Below, piece after piece: positions 17,468 to 23,571 of a stretch of DNA of 41,916 bases. Each line of letters begins with the position of its first letter. The first letter of the stretch is position 1. The notes beneath the pieces are model-generated. The model saw nothing but the letters and a program-made list of their open reading frames with translations. It ran no database searches and had not been told where the DNA came from. The DNA is from Saprospiraceae bacterium (GTDB lineage Bacteria; Bacteroidota; Bacteroidia; Chitinophagales; Saprospiraceae), in assembly GCA_026986005.1 (NCBI GenBank), contig JALSPK010000082.1, forward strand, positions 1-41,916. The letters run 5' to 3'. A program made the translations under genes and the position numbers.

Positions 17468-17500
17468 ATTTACGAAGCGAAGCGAAGCAAACGTAAGCCA

Positions 17501-17783
17501 GCTTTGAAGTCATGCTATCGCATGCTTTCAAGTCCTGGAAGGCGTTTCAAATTTATTTGCGACAGAAAAAACCAGCGGAACTTGCCGATACGTAAGTGCC
17601 GGGTAAAAGAGGTGATAAAACAAACAGAGAAAATGAAAGACAAAAGGATGATGAATAATGAATTAACTACATCGAATACAACTTAATGTTCCTTAATGTC
17701 TTAATGGTTTAAAATATCAAAAGACAAAAGGACAAAGACAAAAGGATTTAATGATGAATGATGAATTATGAATTAAAAAGCCG
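17501..17783 (+). repeat. Tandem hairpin unit 1 (283 bp)
   Basis: Opens with the 35-bp hairpin (17501-17535), then a GTTTCAAAT/ATTTGCGAC half-matching palindrome, then a second hairpin at 17576-17601 (CGGAACTTGC / GTAAGTGCCG, one mismatch and one G-T pair), then purine-rich DNA with 'gacaaaag' words. Nearly identical to unit 2 over its first 220 bp. Confidence 0.8.
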
Positions 17784-18084
17784 GCTTTGAAGTCACGCTA
17801 TCGCATGCTTTCAAGTCCTAAAAGGCGTTTCAAATTTATTTGAAACAAAAAAAACCAGCGGAACTTGCCGATACGTAAGTGCCGGGTAAAAGAGATGATA
17901 AAACAAACAGAGAAAATGAAAGACAAAATGATGATGAATAATGAATTAACTACATCGAATACAACTTAATGTTCCTTAATGTCTTAATGGTTTAAAATAT
18001 CAGAAGACAAAAGGAAAAAGACGAAAGATAAAAGTACAAAGATAATTGTGAATTATGAATAGTAAATGATGAATTAAAAATCCG
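17784..18084 (+). repeat. Tandem hairpin unit 2 (301 bp)
   Basis: Same order as unit 1. The first hairpin (17784-17818) has CACGC opposite GCATG, which breaks one pair. The second palindrome is perfect here (GTTTCAAAT TT ATTTGAAAC), and the third hairpin is at 17859-17884. The end of the unit diverges from unit 1 in its purine-rich part. Confidence 0.8.
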
Positions 18085-18119
18085 GCTTTGAAGTCACGCT
18101 ATCGCGTGCTTTCAAGTCC
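18085..18119 (+). repeat. Tandem hairpin unit 3 (hairpin only)
   Basis: Only the first hairpin is present. Both stem positions differ from unit 1: CACGC faces GCGTG, restoring the pair that is broken in unit 2. Confidence 0.8.
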
Positions 18120-18164
18120 TGCCTTGCACCATAAAAAAAATGATGCTTTAAAAGGTGTCGCAAA

Positions 18165-18418: not shown

Positions 18419-21400
18419 TTACATTGGTTTTATCATTTTTTCAATAAATTCAATTTCTTCTTTTGTTAAATTATATTTTTTGTAAAGTTGTTGGTCTATT
18501 TCTTCAATTGATTTATTCCAATCTATATCCGACTTTGCCGTAAAATCTTGTAAAGGAACAAATTTATATGTTTTTGATGTTGCGTCTTGACTTGCTTTAC
18601 CAATACTATGCTGAAATCTAGCAAATTTAGTTTTGAAATACTTACAAATATTTGATGCAGATAATTCATTTAATTCCAAATCAACACCAACAACAATGTA
18701 CGATTCAGTACAAATTGAATTGGGCTTTCCTATAATTGTATTAAGGTTGTCATCATTTAGTTCTGTTCCAATATTATTTGCTCTAGGAGTAAATACTTTG
18801 TATTTACTAATCCAATCTGTATTTTTTGTTATTTCATCCCTTTCAATATAGCCAATTTGATAACCTTTGCCATAACAAATAACAGGTTTCTTTAGTTTAT
18901 TTTTATTTGGTCTAAAGACTGTGATATTTTTAACAATATTTGCTTCATAACCAAAAGGCTTTCTTGATGAGATATAATTCTCGAAAGTCTTAACTTCTTT
19001 GTCTGATTTAATTTTATTTAAAATTTCAATTGCTAAACTGTGACGTATTAATATATCAGAATCTTTAGTTTTTAAATTTCTATAATAAATTTTTGGGGTT
19101 AAATTATCATTATATGTGTGTACTTTTGTGAAACTTTTTGTGTTATCATATTTGCTATTCCACAGCAAATAACAAATACCACCTCTTAGATTAATGTTTG
19201 GGAAAATCAAATCTGGCTTTAGAAAGTCGTGTAGTTCTGAGATATTTTTGTCGTTAAGCATTTGGTCTCTAAATGTGTCTAGTCCTTTACCTCCAGCATA
19301 CCATCTTGTTGGCATAATCATAGAAATAAAAGTAGGGTTAAGATTCTTTGCTATATTAACAAAATCTTGATAAATGGGTTTGGCACTTGCTCTAGCACCA
19401 CCGTCACTTTCTTGATATGGCGGATTACCAACTATTACATCAAATTTCATATTTTTATTGTTTAATTTTATTGTTTCATCTTTAATCAAATCGTGTTCTT
19501 TGATTAAATCGTAAGATGTGTATTTACGTTCTATGTTATCTAAGTTTAATTCTAGAAGTTTGTACACCTTTCTTGTAAATTCATAAGCTATTTTAGATGT
19601 AGGTATAGAATAAAAATTATTGGCTACATCTTTACCAAACTTCTTATAAACTGCATAAACAAACTCACCTTGTTTTGAGGCAATATCAAGTAGTAGAGAT
19701 GGTTTACTTATTGCCTTACTTGGTAGGGAATTAATTATTTTATCTGTAACAATTTCAGGGGTTACAATTTCAGAATCAGATAAGCGACTAAATTTTTTCA
19801 TAGCATTACTCGCTCTTTCAATAGTCGAAATAGTTGTGTCGTTTGCTAAAGAATTAATATTGTGAATTTTATAATCTAATTCGCTTAAAACAAATGGATT
19901 GATGTGTTTTTGAAATAATGAAAGTATATCAAGTTCAAGGTTTAAATTTGAAGCAATACGTTTATTATCAACAATACTTTTTATTTGGTTAATAATTTCT
20001 TGAAGTGATTTAACTTTAGAATCTGTTAAAAATGAAAAGAAAAGAATTCTTGCGTAATACATAGCAAATTTCCCTTTATAGTCAATCTTTTCTTCTTTTG
20101 TGTGTTTTTGTTTTGTGCCAACTTCATCTGTATCGTCATCATCATCAGAAACATCATCTACATCAATATCATTTCCTTCTCCTTTTGTAGGTTTTATTTC
20201 AAGTCCTTGTTTAGAACCTATTTTACTTTGTTTTTCTATTTCTGCTTTTATTGCTTCTATTTCTAATAAAGACATATCTATTGATATAGATGTAGCTTCA
20301 TCAATCACACTTCTTTCACTTGAATACTTTCTTACTGAATCAATAATATCTGATGGTTCTATTTGAACAATTTTATTGTTGTTTATTACTACAATTGGTG
20401 AAATTTCGAGTTCTCTTGAAATTCTTTCTTCCAAATTAGTATTACCATTGGCTTCTGTATTTACATTATATATTTGTGATTTTTGTTCCTGCATTTGGAA
20501 CATTCTATTAGGATTAAAATCAACTAATAAGGTTTGAGGTTTCATATTATATTTTACAATATCTCCATTTGGTTCTTTGTAAATTTTAATAAATTGACTT
20601 TGTAACCGAAAAATTGCTTGGTCATACTCTTGTGGTGATGCTGTATCTTTTAAATACAACATAGTGTCCCATTGTGGAACAGTACTACCAGTAAGCATTC
20701 TATTTACGGTTAATGTAATTGTCTTCTTACCTTCACTTTCATAGTTTGCTATTTTGGATTTTACCGACTGAGTATCTTTATATATTTTTTCATTTTCAAC
20801 TCCAGAAATATTAATTACTTCATACGAACTTAGATTTCTAAATTCATTACTTTTTATTAATTCTTCAAAAGCATCACAAGATGCACGATAAGGTAAAACA
20901 CACACAATATGACGGCACATTTTACCGTCTTTTAATTTATCATAATCTAAAAAACTTAATAAATTATCATCTTCTTGAGAGCCATCAATTACTTTTAATA
21001 AGTCTATTATTTCTTGTTCGTAGATAAATTTTTTGTGTAGGTTGTTAGTTTTATCTTTAAGTATTGATTTTGGCTTTAATAATTCAGAAAAAGCATAGGT
21101 AATTCCATTCTTTTTCAGTTCTTCCATTTTTCTTCTTGATGATTCATTGGGATTAAAGGCAAATCTTATCATTTGAGGAAAACCATAATAAGGATTATCC
21201 CATTCTTTAATTTCGTCTTTTGTTAAATTTTCTTCATTCCATTTTCTTTGGTCTTCTGCAATATTTGTGAACTGGTAAAATGCTATTATATCGTTTTTAG
21301 TAAATTCACTATTCATTAAAATACGATAAGGTGTTCCTGAAAGATGTATGCGAACTTTGGGTTTTAGAGTTTTAGTGGCTGTTTCTAATTCATCAATTGA

Positions 21401-22366
21401 ATTATCGTTTAGTTTTTGCTCACTTTTTAATTCTTTAGATTTAAAATCTTTTAAAACTTTACCATATTCTAGTGCTCTTGCACCAAAATGAGTTTCATCA
21501 ATAAGCAATAAGTCAATTTGATTTTCAAATACTTCCTTATGTTTTGTTTTTATATCATCTCCTTGTAAATCTTGTAGCGTTAGAAATAAAGCAATTTTTT
21601 CCTTTGCTTCAATTTTTTCTTTGATAACTGTATCGCTTTGTAAAAGTGAATTACTATCTAAAAAAGAAAAACCAACAAATTTGATATGACTTTCAACAGT
21701 CTTTTTCCACTCTCCTTTTACATCAGCTTTTGCAGAAACAATTAATACAATTTTAGCGTCCATCTCAACTGCACAACACATTGATGTAAAAGACTTACCA
21801 AAACGCATTACAGCATACATTAATAAGTTGCTTCTGCCTTTTTTTATAGCTTCTTTAAATCTGTCAATGGTTTCTTGTTGGTTTGGTCTTGGTTCATATT
21901 TTTCTTCTCTTTTGTATGTATGAATTATTGGAATATGACTGTCTTCAAATTTATAATATTGATATTTTGAATCATTATTATTGTGACAATATTTGATATC
22001 AATAATAGCATTAATTAAATCTTCTGCTGAAGTATCTTTAAAAAATTCATTTGAGTAATATGTAATTGAATCTAAAGAATCGCGTAACAAACGCGATTTG
22101 TTAATTTCATTTTCTAAGTATTTATGTACGGCAAAATCTCTAAAAAATGTTTTTTCATCTACTTTAGCAATTTCTTGAAATTTCTTTTCAAGATTTGGGA
22201 AATGTTTTCTCCATTCATTAAGTCTTGTTTCTACAGGTCTGTATGTGTCGCCTACTTTTAAATAATTTGGGATTGTTTTAGTCGTGAAAGCATAAATTTG
22301 CGGTTCAACTCTACCAATGATTATATTGTTAAGTAATTCTGTATTTATTAAATTATTTTCTGCCAT
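18419..22366 (-). CDS. Single-chain restriction-modification enzyme: GIY-YIG-like nuclease, SF2 helicase, adenine methyltransferase, target recognition
   Basis: 1315 residues in at least four parts. Residues 20-90 resemble the T5orf172/GIY-YIG fold: QIYAF (23-27), YLKVGD (35-40), and R43 and R48 as candidate catalytic arginines. Residues 155-600 are an SF2 helicase/translocase: RFGKSFTS (188-195, Walker A), DETH (290-293), HLSGTP (341-346), and QAIFRLQ (583-589, motif VI-like). An acidic linker lies at 733-748. Residues 860-1070 are a gamma-class N6-adenine methyltransferase: EIVTPEIV (866-873, motif X), a divergent motif I LLLDIASKQGEF (891-902), and NPPY (980-983). A C-terminal region at about 1130-1275 probably recognises DNA. 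It resembles type ISP enzymes in layout but has a different nuclease. It follows the M-like gene by 12 bp and the XRE gene, forming an operon. The base composition looks more AT-rich than the flanks by eye. Confidence 0.85.
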   Translation of the reverse strand: MAENNLINTELLNNIIIGRVEPQIYAFTTKTIPNYLKVGDTYRPVETRLNEWRKHFPNLEKKFQEIAKVDEKTFFRDFAVHKYLENEINKSRLLRDSLDSITYYSNEFFKDTSAEDLINAIIDIKYCHNNNDSKYQYYKFEDSHIPIIHTYKREEKYEPRPNQQETIDRFKEAIKKGRSNLLMYAVMRFGKSFTSMCCAVEMDAKIVLIVSAKADVKGEWKKTVESHIKFVGFSFLDSNSLLQSDTVIKEKIEAKEKIALFLTLQDLQGDDIKTKHKEVFENQIDLLLIDETHFGARALEYGKVLKDFKSKELKSEQKLNDNSIDELETATKTLKPKVRIHLSGTPYRILMNSEFTKNDIIAFYQFTNIAEDQRKWNEENLTKDEIKEWDNPYYGFPQMIRFAFNPNESSRRKMEELKKNGITYAFSELLKPKSILKDKTNNLHKKFIYEQEIIDLLKVIDGSQEDDNLLSFLDYDKLKDGKMCRHIVCVLPYRASCDAFEELIKSNEFRNLSSYEVINISGVENEKIYKDTQSVKSKIANYESEGKKTITLTVNRMLTGSTVPQWDTMLYLKDTASPQEYDQAIFRLQSQFIKIYKEPNGDIVKYNMKPQTLLVDFNPNRMFQMQEQKSQIYNVNTEANGNTNLEERISRELEISPIVVINNNKIVQIEPSDIIDSVRKYSSERSVIDEATSISIDMSLLEIEAIKAEIEKQSKIGSKQGLEIKPTKGEGNDIDVDDVSDDDDDTDEVGTKQKHTKEEKIDYKGKFAMYYARILFFSFLTDSKVKSLQEIINQIKSIVDNKRIASNLNLELDILSLFQKHINPFVLSELDYKIHNINSLANDTTISTIERASNAMKKFSRLSDSEIVTPEIVTDKIINSLPSKAISKPSLLLDIASKQGEFVYAVYKKFGKDVANNFYSIPTSKIAYEFTRKVYKLLELNLDNIERKYTSYDLIKEHDLIKDETIKLNNKNMKFDVIVGNPPYQESDGGARASAKPIYQDFVNIAKNLNPTFISMIMPTRWYAGGKGLDTFRDQMLNDKNISELHDFLKPDLIFPNINLRGGICYLLWNSKYDNTKSFTKVHTYNDNLTPKIYYRNLKTKDSDILIRHSLAIEILNKIKSDKEVKTFENYISSRKPFGYEANIVKNITVFRPNKNKLKKPVICYGKGYQIGYIERDEITKNTDWISKYKVFTPRANNIGTELNDDNLNTIIGKPNSICTESYIVVGVDLELNELSASNICKYFKTKFARFQHSIGKASQDATSKTYKFVPLQDFTAKSDIDWNKSIEEIDQQLYKKYNLTKEEIEFIEKMIKPM

Positions 22367-22378
22367 AAATCACTAAAA

Positions 22379-23374
22379 TTACTTTTTTACCAAGTCAATA
22401 AATCTAACATTTTGTCCTTTTTTACCTGAAACTTCATTTTTTATTGACCAATCTTTTATTATGCAATAAATTCCATTGTGTTTAAACATATCATTAGTAA
22501 GGCATCCTTTGCAAAAAGATTTTACTTTTTCTTCTTCCCCAAATAGATTAATTGTTTTTATTTCACTTTCTGTACAAGATAATGGAACTACACTTTTTAA
22601 ACCGTCCATTTGCCACACATTCCAAGAAATAATATTTGCAATGGTTTGAATTGATTTAAGAGAAGGCTCTTTTCTAAATTTGTATTTATAATTTTCTATA
22701 AATGTATATAGCATTGATTCCCTAGCAAGTAGTAAGCTATCTCCTTGCCATTCGTAAGCATAAGTGTTTTCATAAGCAATTTCTGCCCAACTTATCCATT
22801 CTTCTAAATTCTTAACATTTTCATTAATTATTCTTAATTTTCGGTCTAACAAACCTATTCTATCTTCAACTTCAATAAACTCCCCATTAGTTGCATCATA
22901 TCGACTGGTAATATATGGTGCTTCTCCACAAGCAATTTCAAGTCGTTTATCCCTAATGTAATCTTTCCAAGTTTTGTTGTTAGGAAATGTAATTTTTTCT
23001 TTAATTGTTTTCCATTTATTTCCTTTGATTTCTATATTGAAAATATTTTCTCGCTGGAACCAAGATTTGTCTATTAAATTGTTTTGGGCGTTACAAATCC
23101 AAGATGGTGTAAATACTTCTGCCATTTTTTTTACCCTTGACAGTTGTAATACAGAATCTTTTTGTACTCTTGTCATTATCACGTTTCCATTTGTACCAGT
23201 AATCAATTCAGGTTTAATTTCTTTTTTATTGATATAATTTTCTCCCAAATATTCATAATTACTAGTAGCCCAAATAATATTTCTTTGAGTAGTGTGGTCA
23301 TACAGAAGCATATCCAAAACTTCTGGATATGCTTCTAGTATTTCATTTTCTAATATGTCTATTTGAGTGTTCAA
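22379..23374 (-). CDS. Divergent methyltransferase-like 'restriction endonuclease subunit M'
   Basis: 331 residues. It belongs to a family usually annotated as restriction endonuclease subunit M. AEVFTPSWICN (85-95) looks like motif X of N6-adenine methyltransferases. RLEIACGEAPYITSRYD (144-160) looks like a collapsed motif I/IV, and YEWQGDSLLLARE (207-219) resembles the segment after motif IV. A normal NPPY or DPPY is absent, so catalytic activity on its own is doubtful. Four cysteines (267, 288, 291, 304) near the end might bind metal, which is an inference. It lies 20 bp after the XRE gene and 12 bp before the large restriction enzyme. A role as a specificity or methylation partner of that enzyme is the natural reading. 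Confidence 0.7.
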   Translation of the reverse strand: MNTQIDILENEILEAYPEVLDMLLYDHTTQRNIIWATSNYEYLGENYINKKEIKPELITGTNGNVIMTRVQKDSVLQLSRVKKMAEVFTPSWICNAQNNLIDKSWFQRENIFNIEIKGNKWKTIKEKITFPNNKTWKDYIRDKRLEIACGEAPYITSRYDATNGEFIEVEDRIGLLDRKLRIINENVKNLEEWISWAEIAYENTYAYEWQGDSLLLARESMLYTFIENYKYKFRKEPSLKSIQTIANIISWNVWQMDGLKSVVPLSCTESEIKTINLFGEEEKVKSFCKGCLTNDMFKHNGIYCIIKDWSIKNEVSGKKGQNVRFIDLVKK

Positions 23375-23394
23375 TTCAGTTCTTTAATTGGTAT

Positions 23395-23571
23395 TTATAA
23401 ATCGTTTATCTCAACATTCAGTATATTGGCTATTTTATACAAATCTTTTAAGCTTGGTTGTCTTCCGTTCTGAGCATAAGAGTTTACCATATTGTAACTT
23501 TTACCCAATTGTTCAGCAAGCCAAATGTGCTTTATTCCTTTTTTTTCTAAAACCTCTTTTATTCGGTTCAT
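23395..23571 (-). CDS. Small XRE-family helix-turn-helix regulator (C-protein-like)
   Basis: A 58-residue protein: MNRIKEVLEKKGIKHIWLAE followed by QLGKSYNMVNSYAQNGRQPS and a final helix ending EINDL. This is a compact Cro/C1-type domain. LAEQLGKSYNMVNSYAQNG forms the helix-turn-helix, and the QPSLKDLYKIANILNV segment is the typical closing part of XRE proteins. It is the first gene of the restriction-modification operon, 20 bp before the M-like gene. Controller proteins in this position delay or balance restriction-gene expression in many systems. Three TGAATG half-sites 56-89 bp upstream of its start could be its operator. The start ATG is preceded by an A-rich leader without a strong Shine-Dalgarno, as is usual in Bacteroidota. 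Confidence 0.85.
   Translation of the reverse strand: MNRIKEVLEKKGIKHIWLAEQLGKSYNMVNSYAQNGRQPSLKDLYKIANILNVEINDL

What the first reader, a model, noticed from the sequence alone, without database searches (positions are those of the whole stretch)
18419..23571. Three-gene R-M cassette whose nuclease looks like a GIY-YIG domain fused to a helicase and methyltransferase
Seen: one 1315-residue chain carries an N-terminal T5orf172/GIY-YIG-like segment (QIYAF, YLKVGD), SF2 helicase motifs (RFGKSFTS, DETH), a methyltransferase with NPPY, and a probable recognition region. It is preceded by a divergent M-like gene and a 58-residue XRE gene. Known: type ISP enzymes such as LlaBIII join nuclease, translocase, methyltransferase and recognition domain in one chain, but with an Mrr-like nuclease and no separate M partner. 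Inference: this could be a translocating single-chain system with a different cutting module and an obligatory second subunit. The GIY-YIG glutamate is not obvious, so cleavage by this domain is unproven.
Basis: partly seen in the sequence, partly recalled or inferred. Interest (0 to 1): 0.65.

Follow-up and report, generated by a model that had tools for sequence, protein, structure and literature searches.

The report
DNA methyltransferase split across two genes
A bacterial defence cassette appears to divide its DNA-marking enzyme between two proteins: a small one that should hold the methyl donor, and the end of a large DNA-cutting motor that holds the catalytic and target-reading half.

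Summary
The three genes are real and intact at the stated coordinates. R has a T5orf172 (GIY-YIG clan) N-terminus, an SF2 motor and an Eco57I-type methyltransferase with NPPY. PADLOC already holds full-length models of R and M, so the cassette is a catalogued type IIG system.

Apparently undescribed is how the methyltransferase is built. M carries motifs X, I, II and III and stops before motif IV: 0 of 124 unfused M proteins has NPP-aromatic. R has NPPY, but its first SAM-site glycine is Lys in 92 of 92 chains. Nature supplies the join: three viral contigs and phage FNU4 encode M fused to R's C-terminal half, and phage PTm1 carries M plus that half, with no motor found. A fusion model aligns end to end with solved adenine methyltransferases. 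Across 59 relatives, similarity of M and of the C-half does not follow that of motor plus pseudo-half; the step lies at R ~965 in three examined.

Best reading: M plus R's C-half form one split N6-adenine methyltransferase, while R keeps a pseudo SAM half on the motor. That the C-half switches between the two, choosing modification or restriction, is the bold, untested reading.

The parts
23395..23571 (-). XRE-type HTH gene, 58 aa (HTH_3); probable controller; optional
   Evidence: tblastn hit within 400 nt upstream of M in 37 of 78 genome loci with at least 230 nt upstream, of 80 in all
22379..23374 (-). M gene: SAM-binding (N-terminal) half of a gamma-class N6-adenine MTase, 331 aa, TTG start, no NPPY
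23099..23119 (-). M motif X, EVFTPSW
22913..22942 (-). M motif I (SAM site), LEIACGEAPY; first glycine kept, second replaced by Ala
22742..22762 (-). M motif II, YAYEWQG (acid kept)
22601..22621 (-). M motif III region, NVWQMDG; M ends before motif IV
18419..22366 (-). R gene, 1315 aa: nuclease-like domain, SF2 motor, pseudo SAM half, NPPY half and target recognition domain
22007..22297 (-). R 24-120: T5orf172 / GIY-YIG-clan domain; invariant K37, G39, D77, E107
21329..21901 (-). R 156-346: SF2 helicase core (ResIII; RFGKS, DETH); the motor block used in profiles is R 150-690
19469..19834 (-). R 845-966: pseudo SAM-binding half (psN)
19673..19675 (-). Lys898 codon: Lys at the first motif I glycine position (LLLDIASKQG)
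18422..19468 (-). R 967-1315: catalytic half with NPPY plus target recognition domain (CH); occurs elsewhere as a separate gene
19415..19426 (-). R 981-984: motif IV NPPY

Best explanation
This is an ATP-dependent restriction-modification cassette whose single N6-adenine methyltransferase is split between two genes. M supplies motifs X, I, II and III (the methyl-donor half). The last ~350 residues of R (CH) supply motif IV (NPPY) and the target recognition domain. Together they should form one ordinary gamma-class adenine methyltransferase that marks the host's sites. The rest of R is a T5orf172/GIY-YIG-clan nuclease-like domain, an SF2 translocase and a pseudo SAM half (psN, Lys for Gly). On unmarked DNA, R should translocate and cut. 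Shown here by computation: motif division, complementary degeneracy, natural fusions, a natural M+CH pair without a motor, the break point, gene pairing, and that each N-half together with CH models as a complete methyltransferase fold. Inferred: methylation by M+CH, translocation, cutting by the N-terminal domain.
For: (1) Complementary loss (window included): NPP-aromatic in 0 of 124 unfused M proteins, a glycine motif I in 123 of 124; NPP-aromatic in 86 of 86 R-type chains that hold psN and CH, Lys at the first motif I glycine in 92 of 92 chains that hold psN with motor or CH (84 by a pattern open to any residue, 8 read from its printed lines). (2) The distant M family (11 aligned) has textbook motifs (EPACGNG, YGVDI, GDAL); its first member matches only the first half of MmeI_Mtase (21-118 of 259) and N6_Mtase (23-120 of 311), and 9 and 2 of 11 members match these two families; it aligns with the window-type M family at 98.5% probability, motif on motif. 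(3) Natural fusions M-CH: L115, L117, L122 and phage FNU4 (with its listed ATG the FNU4 chain starts just after motif X, though the frame is open upstream). (4) CH as its own gene starting at MKFD..NPPY: PTm1 and L094; also separate in L113 and L116; PADLOC holds CH as a 348-position family. PTm1 has HTH, M and CH, and neither PTm1 nor FNU4 is among the 5 of 50,697 phage records that match R 1-689. (5) The fusion model (pLDDT 90, pTM 0.88) aligns between residues 66 and 655 with CamA (Z 18.2, 416 aligned, 5.2 A). (6) Mean identity to the window for 27 class A and 32 class B relatives: M 66 and 64%, motor 79 and 24%, psN 77 and 23%, CH 57 and 43% (ranges 32-77 and 30-61); in L022, L034, L037 the step lies at R 965.
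Against: R's own psN-CH also models as a complete methyltransferase (pLDDT 89, pTM 0.83, CamA Z 20.5, 412 aligned), so in this chain CH is already partnered in cis and M would have to displace psN or bind a second copy; no complex was modelled. psN is well conserved within a motor class, so it does something. The window-type M family has Ala at the second motif I glycine (CGEAP), so its SAM binding is itself not proven. Counts are of sequences, many related, not of independent events. No member's recognition site, methylation or cleavage is known to me. Profiles found no usable solved relative of the fusion, the N-terminal domain or psN-CH. Nine of 12 viral contigs with M alone show no CH anywhere, though they are only 5-57 kb.
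Confidence: 0.72

Rival explanations
1. R's own methyltransferase is active by itself with an unusual Lys-containing SAM site, and M is a regulatory or DNA-binding pseudo-subunit.
For: psN-CH in cis models as a complete methyltransferase fold; psN is conserved within each motor class; window-type M has Ala at the second motif I glycine.
Against: Lys in 92 of 92 chains where the three solved enzymes aligned have Gly, and motif II without its acid in the sequences looked at; the distant M family keeps a textbook SAM site; fusions and the motor-less pair join M to CH without psN.
Confidence: 0.12
2. An ordinary type IIG enzyme with a second, independent methyltransferase M that marks the other strand.
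For: PADLOC labels R as type IIG REase-MTase and M as a type II MTase.
Against: M has no NPP-aromatic in 124 of 124, and the distant M family matches only the first half of MTase families; M ends before motif IV, so no recognition domain follows it.
Confidence: 0.08
3. M bridges to a second R: a complex with two CH halves, one with M (active) and one with psN (inactive, target-reading), as in dimeric R-M enzymes, without any exchange.
For: Both N-halves model as complete folds with CH; where CH is fused to M the motor still keeps psN.
Against: In the window CH is tied to psN in cis, so a free CH for M needs displacement or a second chain; stoichiometry unknown.
Confidence: 0.2

Closest known systems
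Type ISP enzymes LlaBIII / LlaGI
   Same: N-terminal nuclease, SF2 ATPase, then MTase and recognition domain in one chain (PMC4666363, abstract and passages seen); both models align with the LlaBIII and LlaGI MTase regions (Z 16.2-18.5)
   Different: T5orf172/GIY-YIG-clan domain, not Mrr; degenerate SAM half; constant separate M half
PADLOC type IIG REase-MTase (PDLC03626) with MTase_II (PDLC03390, PDLC03375)
   Same: window R and M fit PDLC03626 and PDLC03390; PTm1's separate CH fits PDLC03375: the family is catalogued
   Different: filed as an enzyme plus type II methyltransferases; the model names and descriptions shown do not state a split
Split cytosine methyltransferases M.AquI and M.EcoHK31I
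   Same: one methyltransferase whose conserved motifs lie on two polypeptides (PMC3404938, passages seen)
   Different: C5 enzymes, cut within the variable region after motif VIII, or with motif IX apart; here an N6-adenine type cut between motifs III and IV, with one half on a restriction motor that also holds a pseudo copy of the other
METTL3-METTL14 type heterodimers (recalled)
   Same: one partner catalytic, one degenerate
   Different: there each chain is a full fold; M here is half a fold

Membership tests
Type ISP R-M | no separate methylation gene | tested here: not met
   M beside the motor in 74 of 80 loci, 6 contig ends; M-like gene near 10 of 11 motors, one contig end. Whether R could act alone was not testable
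Type ISP R-M | Mrr-family nuclease | tested here: not met
   T5orf172 over R 24-120, no Mrr family among the hits up to E 1
Type ISP R-M | SF2 helicase-like ATPase | tested here: met
   ResIII hit; GKS/GKT and DETH/DEAH columns at least 90% conserved in each of 28 class A and 32 class B chains
Type ISP R-M | translocation and collision-triggered cleavage | not testable with these tools
   needs biochemistry
PADLOC type IIG REase-MTase | full-length model match | tested here: met
   PDLC03626, 2-1359 of 1359, 1451 bits
Type IIG (endonuclease and complete MTase in one chain) | complete MTase motifs in the chain | tested here: not met
   Lys for the motif I glycine in 92 of 92 chains
T5orf172 / GIY-YIG clan | profile match above the curated cut-off | tested here: met
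   23.3 bits (whole R) and 27.5 bits (N-terminus alone) against 20; 26 of 30 members match
T5orf172 / GIY-YIG clan | catalytic acid | tested here: inconclusive
   Asp77 and Glu107 invariant in 30 of 30; no fold predicted, no activity
gamma-class N6-adenine MTase | motif I and motif IV in one fold | tested here: met
   met jointly by M+CH: natural fusions and model; not met by M or R alone
split methyltransferase | both parts needed for activity | not testable with these tools
   inferred from motif division

The most novel reading that the evidence does not exclude
The catalytic/target half CH is shared by two competing N-halves: M (SAM-binding) and psN (SAM-less, welded to the motor). CH with M marks the site; CH with psN reads the site and fires the motor and nuclease. 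The choice between modification and restriction would then be a physical exchange of half a protein fold, and a phage that brings its own M or M+CH could push the host enzyme to the harmless side.
Probability: 0.33. Interest if true: 0.82.

Novelty: new variant of a known kind. Interest (0 to 1): 0.62.

Why it matters
How a translocating restriction enzyme decides between marking and cutting the same site is a long-standing question. Here the two acts seem to depend on different N-halves joined to one catalytic/target half, and nature offers it built three ways (CH on the motor, CH free, CH on M), so the decision could be tested by mixing parts. It also corrects annotation: proteins filed as 'restriction endonuclease subunit M' or 'type II methyltransferase' would be half enzymes, which matters when methylomes are assigned to genes. 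The M+CH pair would be a natural split adenine methyltransferase with exchangeable target domains.

Tried and rejected
Reading QMDG of M as a lost motif IV: rejected, since the distant M family shows textbook motifs II (YGVDI) and III (GDAL) at these places. Calling the phage M genes orphans: weakened, since 3 of 12 contigs with M alone in the fetched stretch carry a CH match elsewhere, two of them partial and weak. Two of the three were opened: the match lies in ORFs of 1,927 and 1,813 aa with motor domains; my own CH profile found CH only in the first. The other 9 contigs show none but are 5-57 kb. Specificity shuffling as the main point: only 2 of 109 loci with a motor have more than one CH ORF, ORFs of 150 aa or more counted; L006 has a tandem CH copy with a 99% identical 300-nt flank. 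XRE as an obligate part: rejected, 37 of 78. Profile searches of the PDB with the fusions, the N-terminal domain and psN-CH gave no usable match; only the distant M family matched MTases. Single-protein scans of viral contigs with the FNU4 fusion and with CH found no relative; the M scan found 3. The GK[ST] count is too loose to cite; the conserved columns are used instead. Literature, 10 searches, seen as listings with starts of abstracts: none showed a paper on a split adenine MTase of this kind. Of the papers listed I saw passages of five and of a sixth, PMC3874165. The MhoVII paper (a fusion of two MTases) was not opened. The library lacks most subscription journals, and REBASE could not be read.

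Rows dropped: before the counts, 21 loci were left out: L001-L005 and L129-L140 (short genome search stretches, several overlapping longer loci) and L086, L090-L092 (same records as L105, L110, L108). Near-identical viral contigs (such as L119/L120, L123/L124) were kept. The 80 genome loci are the closest of 320 relatives. Of 79 plasmid records with a motor match, 4 were opened from that list; all 4 have a small M-like gene. One of the 9 loci with a gap between M and motor (L058) has a motor reading frame that starts late, so its gap is not an inserted gene.
Full report
What is there. Three minus-strand genes, XRE (58 aa), M (331 aa, TTG start) and R (1315 aa), lie between unrelated genes of a Bacteroidota-like genome (the host group is inferred from relatives and neighbouring genes). 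G+C drops to about 28% in the cassette. M occurs in 5 of 150 genomes of the family, own included and one a weak partial match, and in 1 of 20 near relatives, the own one: a patchy, probably acquired system. R matches T5orf172, ResIII and Eco57I in Pfam and PADLOC's type IIG model over its whole length; M matches a PADLOC type II methyltransferase model. The cassette is therefore of a catalogued kind.

Is M constant? Of the 80 closest of 320 relatives in public genomes, 74 have a motor gene downstream of M, 65 within 120 nt and 9 after a gap of 551-1,367 nt. In the three gaps opened there is an extra gene; in L058 the gap only reflects a late-starting motor frame. The other 6 contigs end within 1.6 kb. 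Starting instead from the motor, 295 genomes of the class gave matches at E 1e-10 in 11, own included. Around the 11 matches outside the own genome an M-like gene was found at 10; the 11th contig ends. Gene order varies: M then R, R then M, or three genes (small M, psN-CH methyltransferase, nuclease-motor), in some loci with other genes between. Four plasmid systems opened of 79 matched also have a small M-like gene.

The two halves. In gamma-class methyltransferases motif I forms the SAM site and motif IV, NPP(Y/F/W), the catalytic site (PMC3874165, passage seen). M has motifs X, I, II and III and ends before motif IV; R has NPPY but a damaged motif I. In one search (window included), 0 of 124 unfused M proteins carry [DNS]PP-aromatic and 123 of 124 carry a glycine motif I. 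Of the R-type chains, 86 of 86 that hold psN and CH carry NPP-aromatic, and 92 of 92 that hold psN with motor or CH have Lys where the first glycine belongs (84 by a pattern open to any residue, 8 read by eye from the printed lines). In the sequences looked at, the acid of motif II is missing too: FYSIPTS here, VFGIGIT or LFGTSIT on plasmids. The three solved enzymes aligned (MmeI and two type I M subunits) have the glycine. The distant M family reads like the first half of a textbook methyltransferase, stops at position 118-120 of the MmeI_Mtase and N6_Mtase profiles for its first member, and aligns with the window-type M family motif on motif (98.5%, E 1.7e-15). Its alignment with psN is weaker (61.7%) but again sets the motif I glycine stretch against DIASKQG. 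Against this, the window-type M has Ala at the second motif I glycine (CGEAP). Motif names X, II and III are by recall and position.

Natural joins and cuts. Architectures in the 28 viral loci: M next to a full R in 8, and in 1 more with R in two frames; M, CH and motor-psN as three genes in 2; M-CH fused with a separate motor-psN in 3; M plus CH without motor in 1 (phage PTm1); M alone in the stretch in 12; one distant form. Phage FNU4 has an M-CH fusion whose listed start lies just after motif X. In L094 the chain after the motor ends with psN just before motif IV, and CH is its own gene starting MKFDFAIGNPPYQ (the motor there is in two overlapping frames). PTm1's CH starts MKFDIIVGNPPYQ, near HTH and M. 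A tblastn of R 1-689 against 50,697 phage records matched 5, PTm1 and FNU4 not among them. M plus CH is what a phage would keep to mark its own DNA (inference).

Structures. The natural fusion L122 (671 aa; 68-row alignment of 3 fusions with separate M and CH rows, motif columns checked) was modelled at pLDDT 90 and pTM 0.88. It aligns between residues 66 and 655 with the single-chain adenine methyltransferase CamA (Z 18.2, 416 aligned, 5.2 A) and with LlaGI, LlaBIII, DrdV, MmeI and TaqI. The window's own R 831-1315 (psN-CH) was modelled at pLDDT 89 and pTM 0.83 and aligns between 16 and 470 with the same CamA chain (Z 20.5, 412 aligned, 5.5 A). So M and psN appear to be equivalent partners of CH.

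Evolution. Aligned to the window, 27 class A and 32 class B relatives have mean identities of 66 and 64% for M, 69 and 16% for the N-terminal domain, 79 and 24% for the motor, 77 and 23% for psN, and 57 and 43% for CH with wide, overlapping ranges. In the three class B chains examined (L022, L034, L037) identity rises from 11-21% (R 945-964) to 60-65% (R 965-984), the start of CH. Similarity of M and of CH thus does not follow that of motor and psN, as if they were two units with the joint inside the R chain.

The nuclease. T5orf172 matches 26 of 30 N-termini scanned. K37, G39, D77 and E107 are invariant in 30 of 30. Motor motifs (GKS/GKT, DETH/DEAH) are conserved in both classes.

How it most likely works. 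Shown: division of motifs, complementary loss, joins and cuts, pairing. Inferred: M+CH methylates adenine at the site read by CH; on unmarked DNA R's motor translocates and the N-terminal domain cuts, as type ISP enzymes do with an Mrr nuclease (PMC4666363, abstract and passages seen). Open: whether psN-CH and M-CH are two states of one enzyme (the bold reading), coexist in one complex, or psN is only a dock.

Known or new. Natural split methyltransferases are known for cytosine-C5 enzymes (M.AquI, M.EcoHK31I; PMC3404938, passages seen). Ten searches of the open library showed none for this adenine type in their listings. REBASE could not be consulted, so specialists may know the pairing. I file it as a new variant of a known kind.

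Noticed in passing
window 17495-18120: Non-coding repeat of about 283-300 nt spacing in imperfect copies just downstream of R; 71 matches in the own genome, a high-copy intergenic element.
   Followed up: partly
L006 10479-11717: Tandem second CH copy after R: 300-nt flank 99% identical to the R gene, then a different target domain; a spare specificity cassette.
   Followed up: partly
L108 11098-11895 (+) and 11937-12761 (-): Two further CH fragments on opposite strands downstream of R; possible store of target domains.
   Followed up: no
L166 531-6314, L167 1778-7219: Viral contigs of 233 and 411 kb encode 1,927- and 1,813-aa motor proteins related to R, far from their M gene.
   Followed up: partly
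L023 1762-2865, L033 7807-8859, L029 7534-8406: Extra genes between M and R in some loci; the first two look alike and resemble DUF1016 nucleases, the third an ORF6N/KilA-N protein (names recalled).
   Followed up: no
L112 5869-6660; L095 6636-7232, L096 6603-7205: Short M genes with no CH or R beside them; for L112 no CH in the whole 37-kb contig. In the gut phage scaffolds L095 and L096 the 5' part of M lies across a stop or outside the main frame.
   Followed up: partly
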